Translations under genes and position numbers: made by a program
Assembly (NCBI RefSeq): GCF_000487995.2
Contig: NZ_CP097562.1
Span: forward strand, 1,857,001-1,921,000
Source: Mucispirillum schaedleri ASF457
GTDB taxonomy: Bacteria > Chrysiogenota > Deferribacteres > Deferribacterales > Mucispirillaceae
Length of the DNA stretch: 64,000 bases
Reading direction: 5' to 3'
The notes under the pieces: model-generated
Seen by the model: only the letters and a program-made list of their open reading frames with translations
The model's database searches: none
What the model was told of the DNA's origin: nothing
Shown here: positions 10,786 through 40,176 of the stretch, in pieces
Layout: every line of letters starts with the position of its first letter
How positions within the stretch are numbered: position 1 is the stretch's first letter

Positions 10786-11112
10786 TTAATATTCTTCTAA
10801 ACAACTCTTAATTTATTATACAACACTACTGCTGTTATTATGATTATAAGTATAAAACAACTTATTCACAATAATAACTATTACAATTATGTCTTACTGA
10901 GCTTGATTTTTAAGCGAAGTATCTAAAATATACAAACTGCAATAATAATAAAAATAGTATGTATAGTTATTGAAAATTATACTATATAGATTTTTCGCCT
11001 TTAAAATCAGGTTCAAAATAACTGCAATATAAAATTTTTGGATAAGTTCAGACTATACCATAGCCATTATAAGCAGAGAATAAATTGAAATGATATAATT
11101 TTATGACACTAT
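10786..11112. repeat. Gene-free stretch with one copy of the dispersed inverted-arm repeat
   Basis: The left arm begins at 10891 (GTCTTACTGAGC, then GCGAAGTATCT) and the right arm ends near 11022 (AGATTTTTCGC, then GGTTCAAAATAAC). They are separated by about 65 AT-rich bases of the same core as at 21199-21667. Immediately after, 11031-11050 (AAAATTTTTGGATAAGTTCA) matches the IS end of 1502-2953 with one mismatch. No coding sequence is evident. Confidence 0.75.
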
Positions 11113-21198: not shown

Positions 21199-21667
21199 GT
21201 TATACTGAGCCTAAAAGGCGAAGTATTTAAAATATACAAACTACAATAATCATAAAATATAGTATGTATAGTTATTGAAACTCATACCATATAGATTTTT
21301 CTCTTTGCTCAAAATGACAATGTGTGAATTATTATAATAACTGTTATAGTTATGTCATACTGAGCCTGATAAGGCGAAGTATCTAAAATATACAAACTAC
21401 AATAATCATAGAATATAGTATGTATAGTTATTTTAAACTCATACCATATAGATTTTTCGCTTTGCTCAAAATGATAATATGTGAATTATTATAATAGCTG
21501 TTATAGTTATGTCATACTGAGCCTGATAAGGCGAAGTATCTAAAATATACAAACTACAATAATCATAAAATATAGTATGTATAGTTATTTTAAACTCATA
21601 CCATATAGATTTTTCGCTTTGCTCAAAATGACAATGTGTGAATTATTATAACAGCTGTTACAATTAT
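21199..21667. repeat. Three tandem 155-157 bp units of the dispersed inverted-arm repeat
   Basis: Units start at 21199, 21354 and 21511 and are nearly identical. Each has a left arm (GTCATACTGAGC ... GGCGAAGTATCT), a 65-base AT-rich core containing TATAGTATGTATAG, a right arm (AGATTTTTCGCTTTGCTC ... AAAATGAC) that is an imperfect inverted copy of the left, and about 30 bases of linker. A fourth, diverged left arm starts at 21668. The stretch lies in an 890-base gene-free region (21023-21914) between the divergent chemoreceptor and modE-like genes. Confidence 0.9.
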
Positions 21668-22704: not shown

Positions 22705-23736
22705 GTGAAAAAATATATTATTTTGTTTTTTTGCATTTTTTTATCACTGCAAAGCTTATCGTATGCTGAAATATCTATAGATAATAATGATGCTGAATAT
22801 TTAAAGCCATATAAAAAGCATAAAGTTGTGCTGCTGTCTGATAATGATGCTTATGTGGATATATACAGTGATAAATATTATTCAGCTGCACACAGAATAT
22901 CATATATTTCTCCAGAGTGGAATTTCCATGGTGAAGATAATGAAAGCAAGGCATCATGGCTTGGCAAAATATCAGTTTATCCTAAAAATAATGTAACAAG
23001 TTATTTTGTAAGTATTTCTCAGGAAATATATACTCCAGATGATAAATCAGAAAATGTAAGCCCATTAGACCATCCTTATGCAGGCGGACTTTATTTATCT
23101 ATTGGTGTAAACCAAAGACGAGATATATCTTTTGAGCGTATATGGCTGGATATTGGGGTAGTTGGTAAATATTCTTTTGCACAAAATGTTCAGAATGGCA
23201 TTCATACATCAGTGAATACTGACCATAATTCAGTTCTTCCATGGAGTAATCAGGTAGGTGACGAATTTATTATGAATCTGCATTACAGCTGGACAGGAAA
23301 GCTGCGTGTAATTAATACAAATATCATCAGTGCCCATCTGCTTCCATCTGCTGCCATATCATTAGGGAATGGCTCCACATTTCTTGACTTAAATATGCGT
23401 TTAAAAATAGGTCATAATTTAGATGCTTCTTTTGGCACTCCAAAAATGAATTTTGGTCAGGATTTTAACGGTGTTATAAGTGATGATTTTTCTATTTATG
23501 TGTATGGCGGCATAGGATACCGTTTCACATTAAGAAATATATACATTCAAGGTAACACTTGGGAAGACCCTTTCAGACAGGATTTAGACCCATTTGTTAA
23601 TTATTTTGAAGGCGGGCTGGCTTTAGCTTATAAAGGTTTTGAACTTTCATACAGCGTAACTTATAAAAGCAGGGAATATATAGGCCAGCCTTTAAACCAT
23701 ACTTTTGGCTCAATAATGATTAGCTTTGCAATATAG
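22705..23736 (+). CDS. lpxR: LpxR-family outer-membrane lipid A deacylase
   Basis: The family removes the 3'-acyloxyacyl group of lipid A, an outer-membrane reaction that weakens TLR4 signalling. 343 residues with signal peptide MKKYIILFFCIFLSLQSLSYA and a 12-strand barrel. The LpxR landmarks are an Asn-Asp pair (LLSDNDAYVD), YYSAAHRISY, HPYAGGLYLS and a later His in NGIHTS. Its last codons (ATT AGC TTT GCA ATA TAG) form half of a 22-bp sequence repeated at 25558-25579. GTG start, one base after the modE stop, suggests coupling. Activity of the divergent copy is inferred. Confidence 0.85.
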   Translation: MKKYIILFFCIFLSLQSLSYAEISIDNNDAEYLKPYKKHKVVLLSDNDAYVDIYSDKYYSAAHRISYISPEWNFHGEDNESKASWLGKISVYPKNNVTSYFVSISQEIYTPDDKSENVSPLDHPYAGGLYLSIGVNQRRDISFERIWLDIGVVGKYSFAQNVQNGIHTSVNTDHNSVLPWSNQVGDEFIMNLHYSWTGKLRVINTNIISAHLLPSAAISLGNGSTFLDLNMRLKIGHNLDASFGTPKMNFGQDFNGVISDDFSIYVYGGIGYRFTLRNIYIQGNTWEDPFRQDLDPFVNYFEGGLALAYKGFELSYSVTYKSREYIGQPLNHTFGSIMISFAI

Positions 23737-23823
23737 CTATTCATTGTAGATGATAATATTTATATTGCATATAATTGCTAATTATAATAGCATACTTTAT
23801 ATATTATTAATAGAGAGCAGATA

Positions 23824-24807
23824 ATGACTTTTATAGATTTTTGTGCTGGTATTGGTGGAGGAAGACTAGGATTAGAGTTAAATGGTCTTCAGTGTATAGG
23901 ATACAGCGAAATAGATAAAGAAGCAGTTAAAACATATAAAAAGTTGCATGATGCTGAAAATGAAATAAATTTTGGCGATATAACAAAAATTAACCCTGCT
24001 TTACTCCCTGATTTTGATTTACTAATAGCAGGATTTCCTTGTCAAACATTTAGTATTGTTGGAAAGAGAGAAGGGCTAAAAAATGACAAAGAAGGACAGA
24101 TAATATATTATTTAGCTGAAATACTAAGAATAAAACAACCTCAATATTTTATTTTAGAAAATGTTAAAGGTCTTGTAAATCATAATGGTGGTAAAACTTT
24201 TCAAGAAGTTTTAAAGCTACTGGAATATGCAGGATATAATGTTTATTTTGATGTTATTAATTCTATAAATTTTTTGCCACAGAGTAGAGAACGAATATAT
24301 TTTATAGGTATAAAACATAGTGCTAGAATAAAATATTCTTATTCTGAATTAAACAATATGTTGTTTAGTAATATTAGTAGTAAAACAGAATATAGTTTAA
24401 AAACATTTTTAAATCCTACAGAAGAAAATTTATTTGCAGAAGTATCTGCTTCTTATAAAACTTTTTTAAAATATCTAAATAATAAGTATAATAAGGGTAA
24501 ATTTTGTATAAATGAACTTCTACGAAAAGACTATTTAATTATTGATATAAGGCAAAGTGATTTAAGATTATATGAAAATAGAGTTCCAACTTTGAGACGC
24601 AATAGACAAGGTATATTATATGTATATAAAAATCAATTTTATACATTGGGTGCTTTAGATGCATTAAGGTTGCAGGGATTTGATAAAATAAAAAATTTGG
24701 AAAATAAAATAATAGGTCTAAAAAAGCAAGATATTTTAAAACAGTGTGGTAATGCTATGAGTGTAAATGTTATTGAAAATTTAGCTTTTAATTTGTTGAG
24801 GATATGA
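23824..24807 (+). CDS. DNA (cytosine-5) methyltransferase of a type II R-M system
   Basis: Self-protection methylase, 327 residues, HhaI-like. Motif I FCAGIGGGRLGL, motif IV GFPCQTFS with catalytic Cys73, motif VI ENVKGL, motif VIII QSRERIYFIG, and motifs IX-X (RRNRQGILY; QCGNAMSVNVI). The target-recognition region (about 190-260) is short. The partner endonuclease follows by 2 bases and looks like HinP1I, whose site is GCGC, so this enzyme probably makes 5-methylcytosine in GCGC. The specificity is inferred from the partner. Promoter sequence in the 83 bases after the direct repeat is AT-rich but not decisive. Confidence 0.93.
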   Translation: MTFIDFCAGIGGGRLGLELNGLQCIGYSEIDKEAVKTYKKLHDAENEINFGDITKINPALLPDFDLLIAGFPCQTFSIVGKREGLKNDKEGQIIYYLAEILRIKQPQYFILENVKGLVNHNGGKTFQEVLKLLEYAGYNVYFDVINSINFLPQSRERIYFIGIKHSARIKYSYSELNNMLFSNISSKTEYSLKTFLNPTEENLFAEVSASYKTFLKYLNNKYNKGKFCINELLRKDYLIIDIRQSDLRLYENRVPTLRRNRQGILYVYKNQFYTLGALDALRLQGFDKIKNLENKIIGLKKQDILKQCGNAMSVNVIENLAFNLLRI

Positions 24808-24809
24808 AA

Positions 24810-25562
24810 ATGAATTCAATTGAATTAGGCTCAAAAACTGCAAAAGATGGATTTAATAATGAATATTTTGTTGTAAGTATTTTCAATGATTGGAAAAATA
24901 ATGAGCTTGCTAAAAATTGGTTGAAAGCTATGGGATACAAAATAGATGAAATTGAAGAAGTTAATGCATATAAAATAAAGGGCAGTTTTAAAGCTGATGT
25001 TCAAGTTGTAATTCTTATTCAAGTAAAACTTCAACAAATACAGGATATTCAAAATATACAAGTAAAATTGGTATCTAATGCTAACGGATATAATCAAATA
25101 GATAAACGATGGCTTAAATCATATAAAGAGTTATGGACTATACCAGATAATGTATATACTACTTTACAGTATTTTACTGGTGAAATGGAACCTAAAATAG
25201 ATAATCCAAAAGATGCAAGGCGTATGTTTTTTTATGAATTTGATGATTTAGAGCAAAAAAATATTTTAAATTTTTTTCATGAAAATCAGCCATTGATTGT
25301 AAGTGATATTATAAAAGGTAGAGGTAAATTTGCAAGTGAATGGTTTTTAGTGATTTTAAGAAAAAAAGAAAAAAGTGAAGTTAAATGGATATTAAAGCCA
25401 ATAAATGAAGTAATTAATTTTTACAGTGGTAATGTAGAATTTAGTCCGCAGGGTAGTTTAAAAATTGGAAAAATAACTATGCAGAGAAAAGGTGGTGATG
25501 GAGGAAGAGATACAGCAAAAATGCTCCAATTTAAAATTAACCCGTGCGAATTATTTTATTAG
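24810..25562 (+). CDS. HinP1I-like type II restriction endonuclease (predicted GCGC site)
   Basis: 250 residues, close to HinP1I (247). The start MNSIELGSKTAKDGF, the core NIQVKLVSN ... QIDKRWL, the FTGE segment and the tail MLQFKINPCELF resemble HinP1I as I recall it. The PD-(D/E)XK-type residues fall at Asp63, Gln84 and Lys86, against Asp62, Gln81 and Lys83 in HinP1I. ATG 24810 is chosen because GAGGAT lies 6-7 bases upstream and HinP1I begins there; ATG 24804 has no spacer. The gene follows the methylase closely, so translation is coupled. The stop falls inside the second direct repeat. HinP1I cuts G^CGC; cleavage here is predicted. Confidence 0.9.
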   Translation: MNSIELGSKTAKDGFNNEYFVVSIFNDWKNNELAKNWLKAMGYKIDEIEEVNAYKIKGSFKADVQVVILIQVKLQQIQDIQNIQVKLVSNANGYNQIDKRWLKSYKELWTIPDNVYTTLQYFTGEMEPKIDNPKDARRMFFYEFDDLEQKNILNFFHENQPLIVSDIIKGRGKFASEWFLVILRKKEKSEVKWILKPINEVINFYSGNVEFSPQGSLKIGKITMQRKGGDGGRDTAKMLQFKINPCELFY

Positions 25563-25575
25563 CTTTGCAATATAG

Positions 25576-27183
25576 CTATGAATGGTTTATAATAAGCACA
25601 TCATCATTTTCAATAACAGTATTGCCCCGTGGTATAATAACAGTATTATTTCTTTGTATCATCACTATAAGCATATTTTCCTCTGCTTTTAATTCTGCAA
25701 CTTTTTTGCCTATAAGTCCACTTGTTTCATCAATATGTTTTTCAGATATTTTAACACCTTCTATATTATCGCCAGCTTTTGCACAAAGTATTAAAATATC
25801 ATCAGTTTTAAGGACAGTAGAGCCTTTTGGCACTATTTTTTTTAAGCCTCTTTGCAGCATAGCAATAATAGTATCAGGCGGCAGTGTAATATCTTTTACT
25901 GCCTTTTCATTCCAAGGGTGTCCTTCAGATATGGAGCTTCTAATAAACTTAACAGGCACTTCATCTGAATAGTCGGTAAATGTTTTCATAACATCTTCAC
26001 TGTTATCTATCATATTCAGCTTTTTAGCAGCATAAGGGATAAGTGAGCCTTGAAAAAGGATAGAAAAAAGAACTATTAAAAATACAATATTAAGTATATC
26101 ATTACCTGCATATTCTGTATTTGAAGCAAGTCCGTTTTTTGCCATTATCGCAAATACAATAGATGCAGCCCCCCTAAGTCCTGAAAAAGCAACAAGAGAC
26201 TGCTGGTTAAAACTTGCTTTAAGTGGAGTAAGCAGTGCAAAAACAGATGCAGGTCTTGCGATAAATGTTAAAAATAAAGCAATAATTAAGGCAGGCAGTA
26301 TATATTTTGGAAACTGTGACGGAAATGATAAAAGCCCAAGCAGGAAGAAAAGCAGCATCTGCATAAGGTCTGTTACACCATCAAAGAAATATACAAGTGG
26401 TTTTTTATCATTAAATTTAGTATTGCCAAGCACAATGCCTACAATATAAGCACTTAAAAAACCATTGCCGCCAATAAAGGCAGGCAGAGAATATGAAAGC
26501 AGTGCAACTGCTACAACAAAAATCATTCTCATTCCGCCTGAAGAAAAATGATATTTTTGGATAACTTTCACTGCTCCATACGATATTGCAGCACCAGCAG
26601 CAATGCCATAAACAACCTGAGCAAAAAGCATATATACAAAAGAGCCTGCATTAAAATCGCCAGTAATCATAGTGATAAGTATAATAGTAAGCATATAGGC
26701 AGCAGGGTCGTTACTTCCGCTTTCAAGCTCTAATAATGGGGCAGTGCCTTCTTTTAAGTTCAATCTTTTTGAGCGAAGTATGGAAAAAACAGAGGCAGCA
26801 TCTGTTGAGCTGATAACTGAGCCAAGTAGAAAGCTGACAAGAATTGACATACCTATTACATAATGGCAGAAAAGCCCAATAAGTGCAGCAGTCATCACAA
26901 CACCAAGTGTTGAAAGTATTGCAGCTTTTGCCACCACAGGTTTTGCTGTCGCCCATTTTGTGCCAAAACCGCCATAAAATATAATAAAAATAAGAGCGAT
27001 TGTTGCAATCTGCTCCATAATAACATAATTATCAAAAGGAATTTTAAAAATACCATCAGAGCCAAAAAGCATACCAAGAATTATAAATGCCAGCAGCATA
27101 GGCATACCAAGTCTGCTGGATACTTTTGTAAGCATAATACATAATATTAAAACAAATGATAAAATTAAAAGTGTTGATGTCAT
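25576..27183 (-). CDS. CPA1-family K+/H+ (or Na+/H+) antiporter with RCK_C domains
   Basis: Inner-membrane cation/proton exchanger of 535 residues. About 12-13 helices fill residues 1-395, with the family-typical GSVISSTDAASVFSIL segment (Asp of the ion site), LELESGSNDPAAYM and FSGLRGAASIVFA. The C-terminus has two TrkA_C/RCK_C units (about 405-465 and 475-535), as in NhaP2/CvrA K+/H+ antiporters. Its stop codon is inside the R-M-flanking 22-bp repeat; the coding region is intact. An AAGGTATATT site precedes the ATG. Ion preference is inference from domain layout. Confidence 0.9.
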   Translation of the reverse strand: MTSTLLILSFVLILCIMLTKVSSRLGMPMLLAFIILGMLFGSDGIFKIPFDNYVIMEQIATIALIFIIFYGGFGTKWATAKPVVAKAAILSTLGVVMTAALIGLFCHYVIGMSILVSFLLGSVISSTDAASVFSILRSKRLNLKEGTAPLLELESGSNDPAAYMLTIILITMITGDFNAGSFVYMLFAQVVYGIAAGAAISYGAVKVIQKYHFSSGGMRMIFVVAVALLSYSLPAFIGGNGFLSAYIVGIVLGNTKFNDKKPLVYFFDGVTDLMQMLLFFLLGLLSFPSQFPKYILPALIIALFLTFIARPASVFALLTPLKASFNQQSLVAFSGLRGAASIVFAIMAKNGLASNTEYAGNDILNIVFLIVLFSILFQGSLIPYAAKKLNMIDNSEDVMKTFTDYSDEVPVKFIRSSISEGHPWNEKAVKDITLPPDTIIAMLQRGLKKIVPKGSTVLKTDDILILCAKAGDNIEGVKISEKHIDETSGLIGKKVAELKAEENMLIVMIQRNNTVIIPRGNTVIENDDVLIINHS

Positions 27184-39703: not shown

Positions 39704-40176
39704 AAGAATTGAAATAATAATATACTGTTGCAAAAAAGCAATAATATATGGTTATATAAAGTTTTAATAGCATGTAATGTTTGAAAGTGTGTTAATAAGT
39801 AACAAAAGAAATCTTTAATATTTATTATGAATACAGCAAGATAATTTAAAGTAAATGCGGTATTACTGAGCCTAAAAGGTGAAGTATCTAAAAAAAGAAT
39901 GTCAATGCTGAGCTTGATGTTTAAGCGAAGTATCTAAAAACAATAGATAGTTTAAATATATTATACATTACTGTCATATCAATCATTTAAATTTTTCGCC
40001 TTTAAAAATCAGGCTCAAAATGACATAATTGTAATATTTTTATTTATTCATAGTTACAGCAATACAATGTCTATTCTGAGCGTAGTGAAAAATCATAATA
40101 TATCTTTTATTTTCAAATTCATTATATATTTATTTTTAGTAATAAATATTACGAAATTAATTTGAGTATCAAATAT
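39704..40176. repeat. Gene-free stretch with several dispersed repeat arms
   Basis: Left arms start at about 39868 (TATTACTGAGCC, then GAAGTATCT) and 39901 (GTCAATGCTGAGC, then GCGAAGTATCT). A right arm ends near 40024 (TTTTTCGCC, then AGGCTCAAAATGAC), and a further arm lies at about 40069-40094 (GTCTATTCTGAGCG, then GTGAAAAATC). No gene seen. The nested first two left arms suggest one copy inserted next to another. Confidence 0.7.

What the first reader, a model, noticed from the sequence alone, without database searches (positions are those of the whole stretch)
23719..25579. HinP1I-like R-M pair inserted with a 22-bp target duplication between two convergent stop codons
Seen: an exact 22-bp direct repeat at 23719-23740 and 25558-25579, with bases differing immediately outside. 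The first copy ends lpxR; the second ends the endonuclease gene and the antiporter (stop 25576-25578). Removing one copy plus the cassette restores a simple convergent pair with no damage. Known: insertion of R-M genes with long target duplications has been described in other bacteria. Inferred: a clean, transposase-free acquisition of 1839 bp.
Basis: partly seen in the sequence, partly recalled or inferred. Interest (0 to 1): 0.82.

Follow-up and report, generated by a model that had tools for sequence, protein, structure and literature searches.

The report
R-M cassette inserted with target duplication
A two-gene DNA-cutting and DNA-protecting system slipped cleanly into a gut bacterium between the ends of two neighbouring genes, copying a short stretch of the target as it did so; six sister species still carry the empty site, which confirms an insertion type known mainly from Helicobacter in a quite different phylum.

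Summary
ATTAGCTTTGCAATATAGCTAT occurs exactly twice in the genome, at 23719-23740 and 25558-25579. Between the copies lie a C5-cytosine methyltransferase (327 aa) and an R.HinP1I-type endonuclease (252 aa). The genus is Mucispirillum. Six of nine other species genomes have the same lpxR/antiporter junction with a single copy and no cassette. G002 and G007 carry the same pair at exactly this site. G005 keeps only a deletion remnant there. The pair occurs nowhere else in the genus, so "insertion with target duplication" is confirmed by empty sites.

Refinements: in G002 the duplication is still about 33 bp, so 22 bp is the exact core that survives here. The cassette forms one clade within or beside those of gut Helicobacter/Campylobacter. 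GCGC, the inferred site, is strongly avoided in carriers (8 seen, 165 expected in G000). Recombination tracts end within about 120 bp of the insertion. The repeats resemble each other more within a genome than between clades, so they were homogenised or the site was filled more than once.

Two other HinP1I-type pairs sit between long direct repeats: H. cinaedi (59 bp, with an empty-site relative) and an Anaerolineaceae MAG (92 bp). This is a new member of a known kind, "insertion with long target duplication".

The parts
22705..23736 (+). lpxR (outer-membrane lipid A deacylase family), left neighbour; its last 18 nt form the first part of the left repeat copy
   Evidence: ORF; PF09982 E=4e-68
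23719..23740 (+). left copy of the target duplication (exact 22 nt; degenerate similarity continues to 23756)
   Evidence: single copy in empty genomes; extent in G002
23741..25557 (+). unique inserted DNA (1817 bp, 26% GC against 34-35% in the flanking genes), absent from G001, G003, G004, G006, G008, G009
23737..23823 (+). leader of the cassette; TATTGCA and TATAATA motifs keep the same spacing from the lpxR stop in G000, G002 and G007; probable promoter (inferred)
23824..24807 (+). M: C5-cytosine DNA methyltransferase, 327 aa; N-terminal half like M.HhaI
   Evidence: PF00145 E=4.5e-66; HhaI E=6e-35
24804..25562 (+). R: R.HinP1I-type restriction endonuclease, 252 aa (overlaps M by 4 nt; the start matching R.HinP1I is the ATG at 24810); stop codon lies in the right repeat copy
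   Evidence: PF11463 E=2e-100; 1ynm E=5e-79
25558..25579 (+). right copy of the target duplication; holds the R stop codon and the antiporter stop codon
25576..27183 (-). potassium/proton antiporter (NhaP2/CvrA type), right neighbour; recombination tracts in relatives end within about 120 bp of its 3' end
   Evidence: NF003716; tracts

Best explanation
A two-gene Type II R-M unit (M then R, inferred specificity GCGC) entered a Mucispirillum ancestor from a source related to gut Campylobacterota. It integrated without a transposase at the stop-to-stop junction of lpxR and the antiporter, duplicating about 33 bp of target so that both genes stayed intact (empty and filled sites shown; ancestry inferred). 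Since then the unit has been gained and lost among species at this one place. Most likely this happened by homologous recombination through the conserved flanks, plus occasional recombination between the repeat copies, which both removes the unit cleanly and makes the copies alike (inferred). The physical step that made the duplication is unknown; I favour end-joining of incoming linear DNA into a staggered chromosomal break whose single strands are filled in.
For: Empty sites with one copy in six species. Filled sites at the same position in G002 and G007, and in G005 a remnant (a deletion runs from the start of lpxR into the 3' end of R). No other copy in the genus. Junction offsets agree in both clades: lpxR stop to TATTGCA 26 nt, R stop to antiporter stop 13 nt. 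R proteins of the genus form one clade (SH-aLRT 100) inside a clade with Campylobacterota (99). GCGC observed/expected is 0.05, 0.06 and 0.14 in carriers, against 0.30-0.64 in four of the six empty genomes. G007 and G001 share a 98-100% identical tract that begins about 60 bp from the cassette edge while their lpxR genes are about 75% identical; G003/G004 show a foreign antiporter segment beginning about 120 bp from it. Similar architecture in H. cinaedi with an empty-site relative and in an Anaerolineaceae MAG. Precedent in H. pylori: PMC10423294, PMC3874152, PMC1643837.
Against: If there was one insertion at the genus root, about five later losses are needed on the species tree, and the 13 non-coding bases of the right copy would have had to be homogenised with lpxR in both clades. 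Synonymous similarity of the cassette between clades (0.37, 0.27-0.45) is somewhat above that of rpoB+gyrB (0.26, 0.21-0.29), which hints at later transfer. G003 and G008 are empty but avoid GCGC, so avoidance does not track the present state strictly.
Confidence: 0.72

Rival explanations
1. Independent insertions: the cassette entered the same junction separately in the G000/G002 lineage and in the G005/G007 lineage, each time duplicating the local sequence.
For: Repeat copies match within a genome (G000 18/18, G002 17/18, G007 14/18 over the lpxR-end part) better than between clades (12/18 for G000R against G007R). Presence needs only three changes on the tree. Cassette divergence between clades is slightly low.
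Against: Both junctions lie at identical offsets in the two clades, which two end-joining events would not be expected to give. The genus cassettes are one clade. The unusual lpxR end SISI is found only in G007, and its codons match the right copies of both G007 and G005, which fits copying from the right repeat into lpxR instead (inference).
Confidence: 0.2
2. Mobile unit that excises as a circle by recombination between its repeats and re-enters at the same conserved junction by a single crossover in the repeat.
For: The direct repeats that this needs are present; the site is the only one used; empty and filled alleles alternate among close species.
Against: No circle or excised form has been seen; repeats of 22-33 bp are very short for this; tracts reaching into the flanks point to ordinary allelic recombination.
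Confidence: 0.1
3. Insertion by an undetected transposon, integron or phage, since lost.
For: R-M genes often ride on such elements (PMC3874152).
Against: No transposase or integrase beside the pair, no relative in viral contigs or phage records, only Spiroplasma/Mycoplasmopsis replicons among plasmids, and a duplication far longer than usual for IS elements.
Confidence: 0.06
4. Chance repeat or assembly artefact.
For: AT-rich sequence raises the chance of short repeats.
Against: Chance maximum 14-17 bp; closed genome; the same structure in independently assembled genomes.
Confidence: 0.01

Closest known systems
Insertion with long target duplication of R-M genes in Helicobacter pylori (Nobusato et al. 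2000, cited in PMC1643837, PMC3874152 and PMC3031569; Type II systems with 65-395-bp flanking repeats in PMC10423294)
   Same: A Type II R-M unit lies between direct repeats made from the target, with a single copy in genomes without it and no mobile-element genes.
   Different: Shorter repeat (22 bp exact, about 33 bp originally), placed exactly on two abutting stop codons; a different phylum (Deferribacterota); variation between species rather than only between strains; repeat copies appear homogenised.
HinP1I R-M (R.HinP1I, PDB 1ynm; site G^CGC, from my own knowledge)
   Same: The endonuclease aligns over its full length (E=5e-79), with the D and QxK residues of the known active site in place.
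   Different: The S before the catalytic D is A here, there is a short insertion before QxK, and the methyltransferase resembles M.HhaI only in its N-terminal half; specificity was not measured.
HinP1I-type pair upstream of nifU in Helicobacter cinaedi (L052/G040)
   Same: M-R pair of the same clade, flanked by a 59-bp (95%) duplication of the 5' end of nifU; relative G045 has a single copy and no insert.
   Different: The target is a gene start, not two gene ends; relative G044 has a different putative R-M pair at the same duplicated site.

Membership tests
Insertion with long target duplication (R-M type) | Direct repeats of target sequence on both sides of the insert | tested here: met
Insertion with long target duplication (R-M type) | Related genomes without the insert carry one copy | tested here: met
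   six genomes
Insertion with long target duplication (R-M type) | No transposase, integrase or terminal inverted repeats at the ends | tested here: met
   ORFs and Pfam around the insert; no inverted repeat pairing the two ends among the 25 longest shown
Insertion with long target duplication (R-M type) | Long and variable duplication, of the order of 100 bp | tested here: inconclusive
   22 bp exact, about 33 bp in G002: longer than usual for IS elements but shorter than the 65-395 bp of PMC10423294; 59 and 92 bp in two relatives
HinP1I Type II R-M | Endonuclease of the R.HinP1I family with the D...QxK active site | tested here: met
HinP1I Type II R-M | Adjacent C5 methyltransferase | tested here: met
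   M next to R in Campylobacterota loci
HinP1I Type II R-M | Cuts and methylates GCGC | not testable with these tools
   Indirect only: GCGC avoidance

The most novel reading that the evidence does not exclude
HinP1I-type R-M pairs are minimal, transposase-free mobile units. The target duplication they create then serves as a landing and exchange site, so that the same junction is emptied, refilled or loaded with another R-M system (seen as a swap at nifU in the Helicobacter cinaedi group and as alternating states in Mucispirillum), while the repeats convert the ends of host genes, as in the altered LpxR C-terminus of G007.
Probability: 0.25. Interest if true: 0.72.

Novelty: new member of a known kind. 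Interest (0 to 1): 0.45.

Why it matters
How small R-M units move without a transposase has been open since the H. pylori comparisons. This locus gives filled, empty and remnant alleles of one cassette across ten species, with both neighbouring genes intact in the filled and empty forms, in a phylum where I found no such report. It ties cassette state to site avoidance and to recombination tracts, and it makes excision and re-entry directly testable.

Tried and rejected
(1) Phage or plasmid vehicle: no relative in viral contigs or phage records, only three mollicute records among plasmids. (2) The 22-mer as a general insertion target: it occurs only here. (3) Dating the insertion by synonymous divergence: between-clade values are near saturation and the confidence ranges nearly touch, so vertical descent and later transfer are not separated. 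(4) G005+G007 as sisters, which would simplify the history: rejected on five genes (AU p=1.7e-6), although the modE tree alone suggests it. (5) Long repeats near other HinP1I-type loci: L048 and L060 lie far from the pair, L060 looks like a terminator hairpin, and L075 has a transposase-like ORF beside the repeat, so none is counted as a clean case. (6) A stem-loop terminator at the junction: none found.

Full report
The window lies in a closed 2.347-Mb genome; the nearest public relatives are Mucispirillum. The 22-bp repeat is real, exact and unique in the genome. Allowing three mismatches, it is found in the genus only at this junction, in G000, G002 and G003. Simulated windows give chance repeats of at most 17 bp within 3 kb.

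Between the copies are two overlapping genes. M is a C5-cytosine methyltransferase (PF00145). R matches PF11463 (R.HinP1I) over its whole length, and the only solved relative is R.HinP1I. The pair is AT-rich (26% GC, against 34-35% for the neighbours). It keeps a leader with conserved motifs in G000, G002 and G007.

The decisive comparison is with nine other species of the genus. G001, G003, G004, G006, G008 and G009 have lpxR running into the antiporter: in four of them the lpxR TAG directly abuts the antiporter stop, and G008 and G009 use TAA variants. They have a single copy of the junction and no cassette. G002 has the pair at the same junction; it is split over two contigs, so its M gene is not fully assembled. 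G007 has it intact. G005 has lost most of lpxR, all of M and most of R in one deletion but keeps the end of R and the right copy. R occurs nowhere else in these genomes. This confirms an insertion with target duplication. In G002 the copies still match at 30 of 33 positions across both stop codons, so the original duplication was about 33 bp.

Number of events. On a five-gene tree, ((G005,(G007,(G001,G006))),(G009,(G008,((G000,G002),(G003,G004))))), the presence pattern needs at least three changes. The G000+G002 pairing has only moderate support (75/89). Three facts favour one original insertion: the genus R proteins form one clade next to Campylobacterota, both junctions sit at identical offsets in both clades, and all carriers use one site. 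One fact complicates it: the right copy, which is non-coding over 13 nt, resembles the lpxR end of its own genome more than that of the other clade. In G007 the lpxR end reads SISI where eight other genomes have SFAI, and the right copies of G007 and G005 carry that variant. I infer conversion between the copies, here from the right copy into lpxR. Independent insertions remain possible. Synonymous divergence does not settle it.

Recombination around the site. G007 and G001 are 98-100% identical over about 3 kb starting about 60 bp inside the antiporter, while their lpxR genes are about 75% identical; G006 shares the first part of this tract. G003 and G004 carry a foreign antiporter segment starting about 120 bp inside. 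Such tracts would be expected to stop where a filled and an empty allele cease to be homologous. They show that alleles of this region are exchanged between species, the likely route by which the cassette spreads and is lost.

Function. GCGC is strongly avoided in the carriers: observed/expected 0.05 in G000 (8/165), 0.06 in G002 and 0.14 in G007. It is 0.23 in the remnant G005 and 0.30-0.64 in G001, G004, G006 and G009. G003 (0.10) and G008 (0.06, only 17 expected) are empty but avoid it too, which could mean recent loss or another enzyme. This fits an active GCGC system but is indirect. GTAC avoidance in G000 (0.04) agrees with the PabI-type (GTAC) homologue reported in M. schaedleri (PMC4615327), which suggests the measure is informative.

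Wider pattern. Among 72 HinP1I-type loci scanned, long exact repeats close to both ends were found in few, against 0 of 150 mismatched pairs. In H. cinaedi the pair lies between two 59-bp copies (95%) of the nifU start. Relative G045 has one copy and no insert. G044 has a partly decayed copy and a different two-gene unit: a putative N6-adenine methyltransferase with an NPPF motif and a small putative nuclease. Pfam has no match for either, so this is my reading of motifs. In an Anaerolineaceae MAG the pair lies between 92-bp copies (97%), with no empty site available.

Known background: insertion with long target duplication was described for H. pylori R-M genes (Nobusato et al. 2000, as cited in PMC1643837 and PMC3874152). 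Six H. pylori Type II systems have 65-395-bp flanking repeats with single copies in strains that lack them (PMC10423294). The present case is a new member of that kind.

Noticed in passing
whole window and sampled G000 regions: Extreme avoidance of several 4-bp palindromes: GATC 0 of 123 expected in the window (15/432 in 224 kb), ACGT, GTAC, GGCC and TCGA likewise, with species-specific patterns across the genus.
   Followed up: partly
21228-21640, with further copies near 10909-11005 and 39864-40006: A repeat family: three copies about 157 bp apart just upstream of the ModE-like gene, and single related stretches elsewhere in the window.
   Followed up: no
L027/L146 (G007), L148 (G001), L147 (G006); G003/G004 antiporter: Sharp recombination tracts across the antiporter gene between species, with one edge next to the R-M insertion site.
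   Followed up: partly
L052 4937-6899, L200 1697-3483, L201: The nifU start of the Helicobacter cinaedi group is empty in G045, holds a HinP1I-type pair in G040, and holds a different putative R-M pair in G044, with traces of the same duplication.
   Followed up: partly
L105 48-139 and 1973-2064: 92-bp direct repeats (97%) flank a HinP1I-type pair in an Anaerolineaceae MAG.
   Followed up: partly
L029 about 1890-2050: G005 has a deletion joining the start of lpxR to the 3' end of R, removing methyltransferase and endonuclease together.
   Followed up: yes
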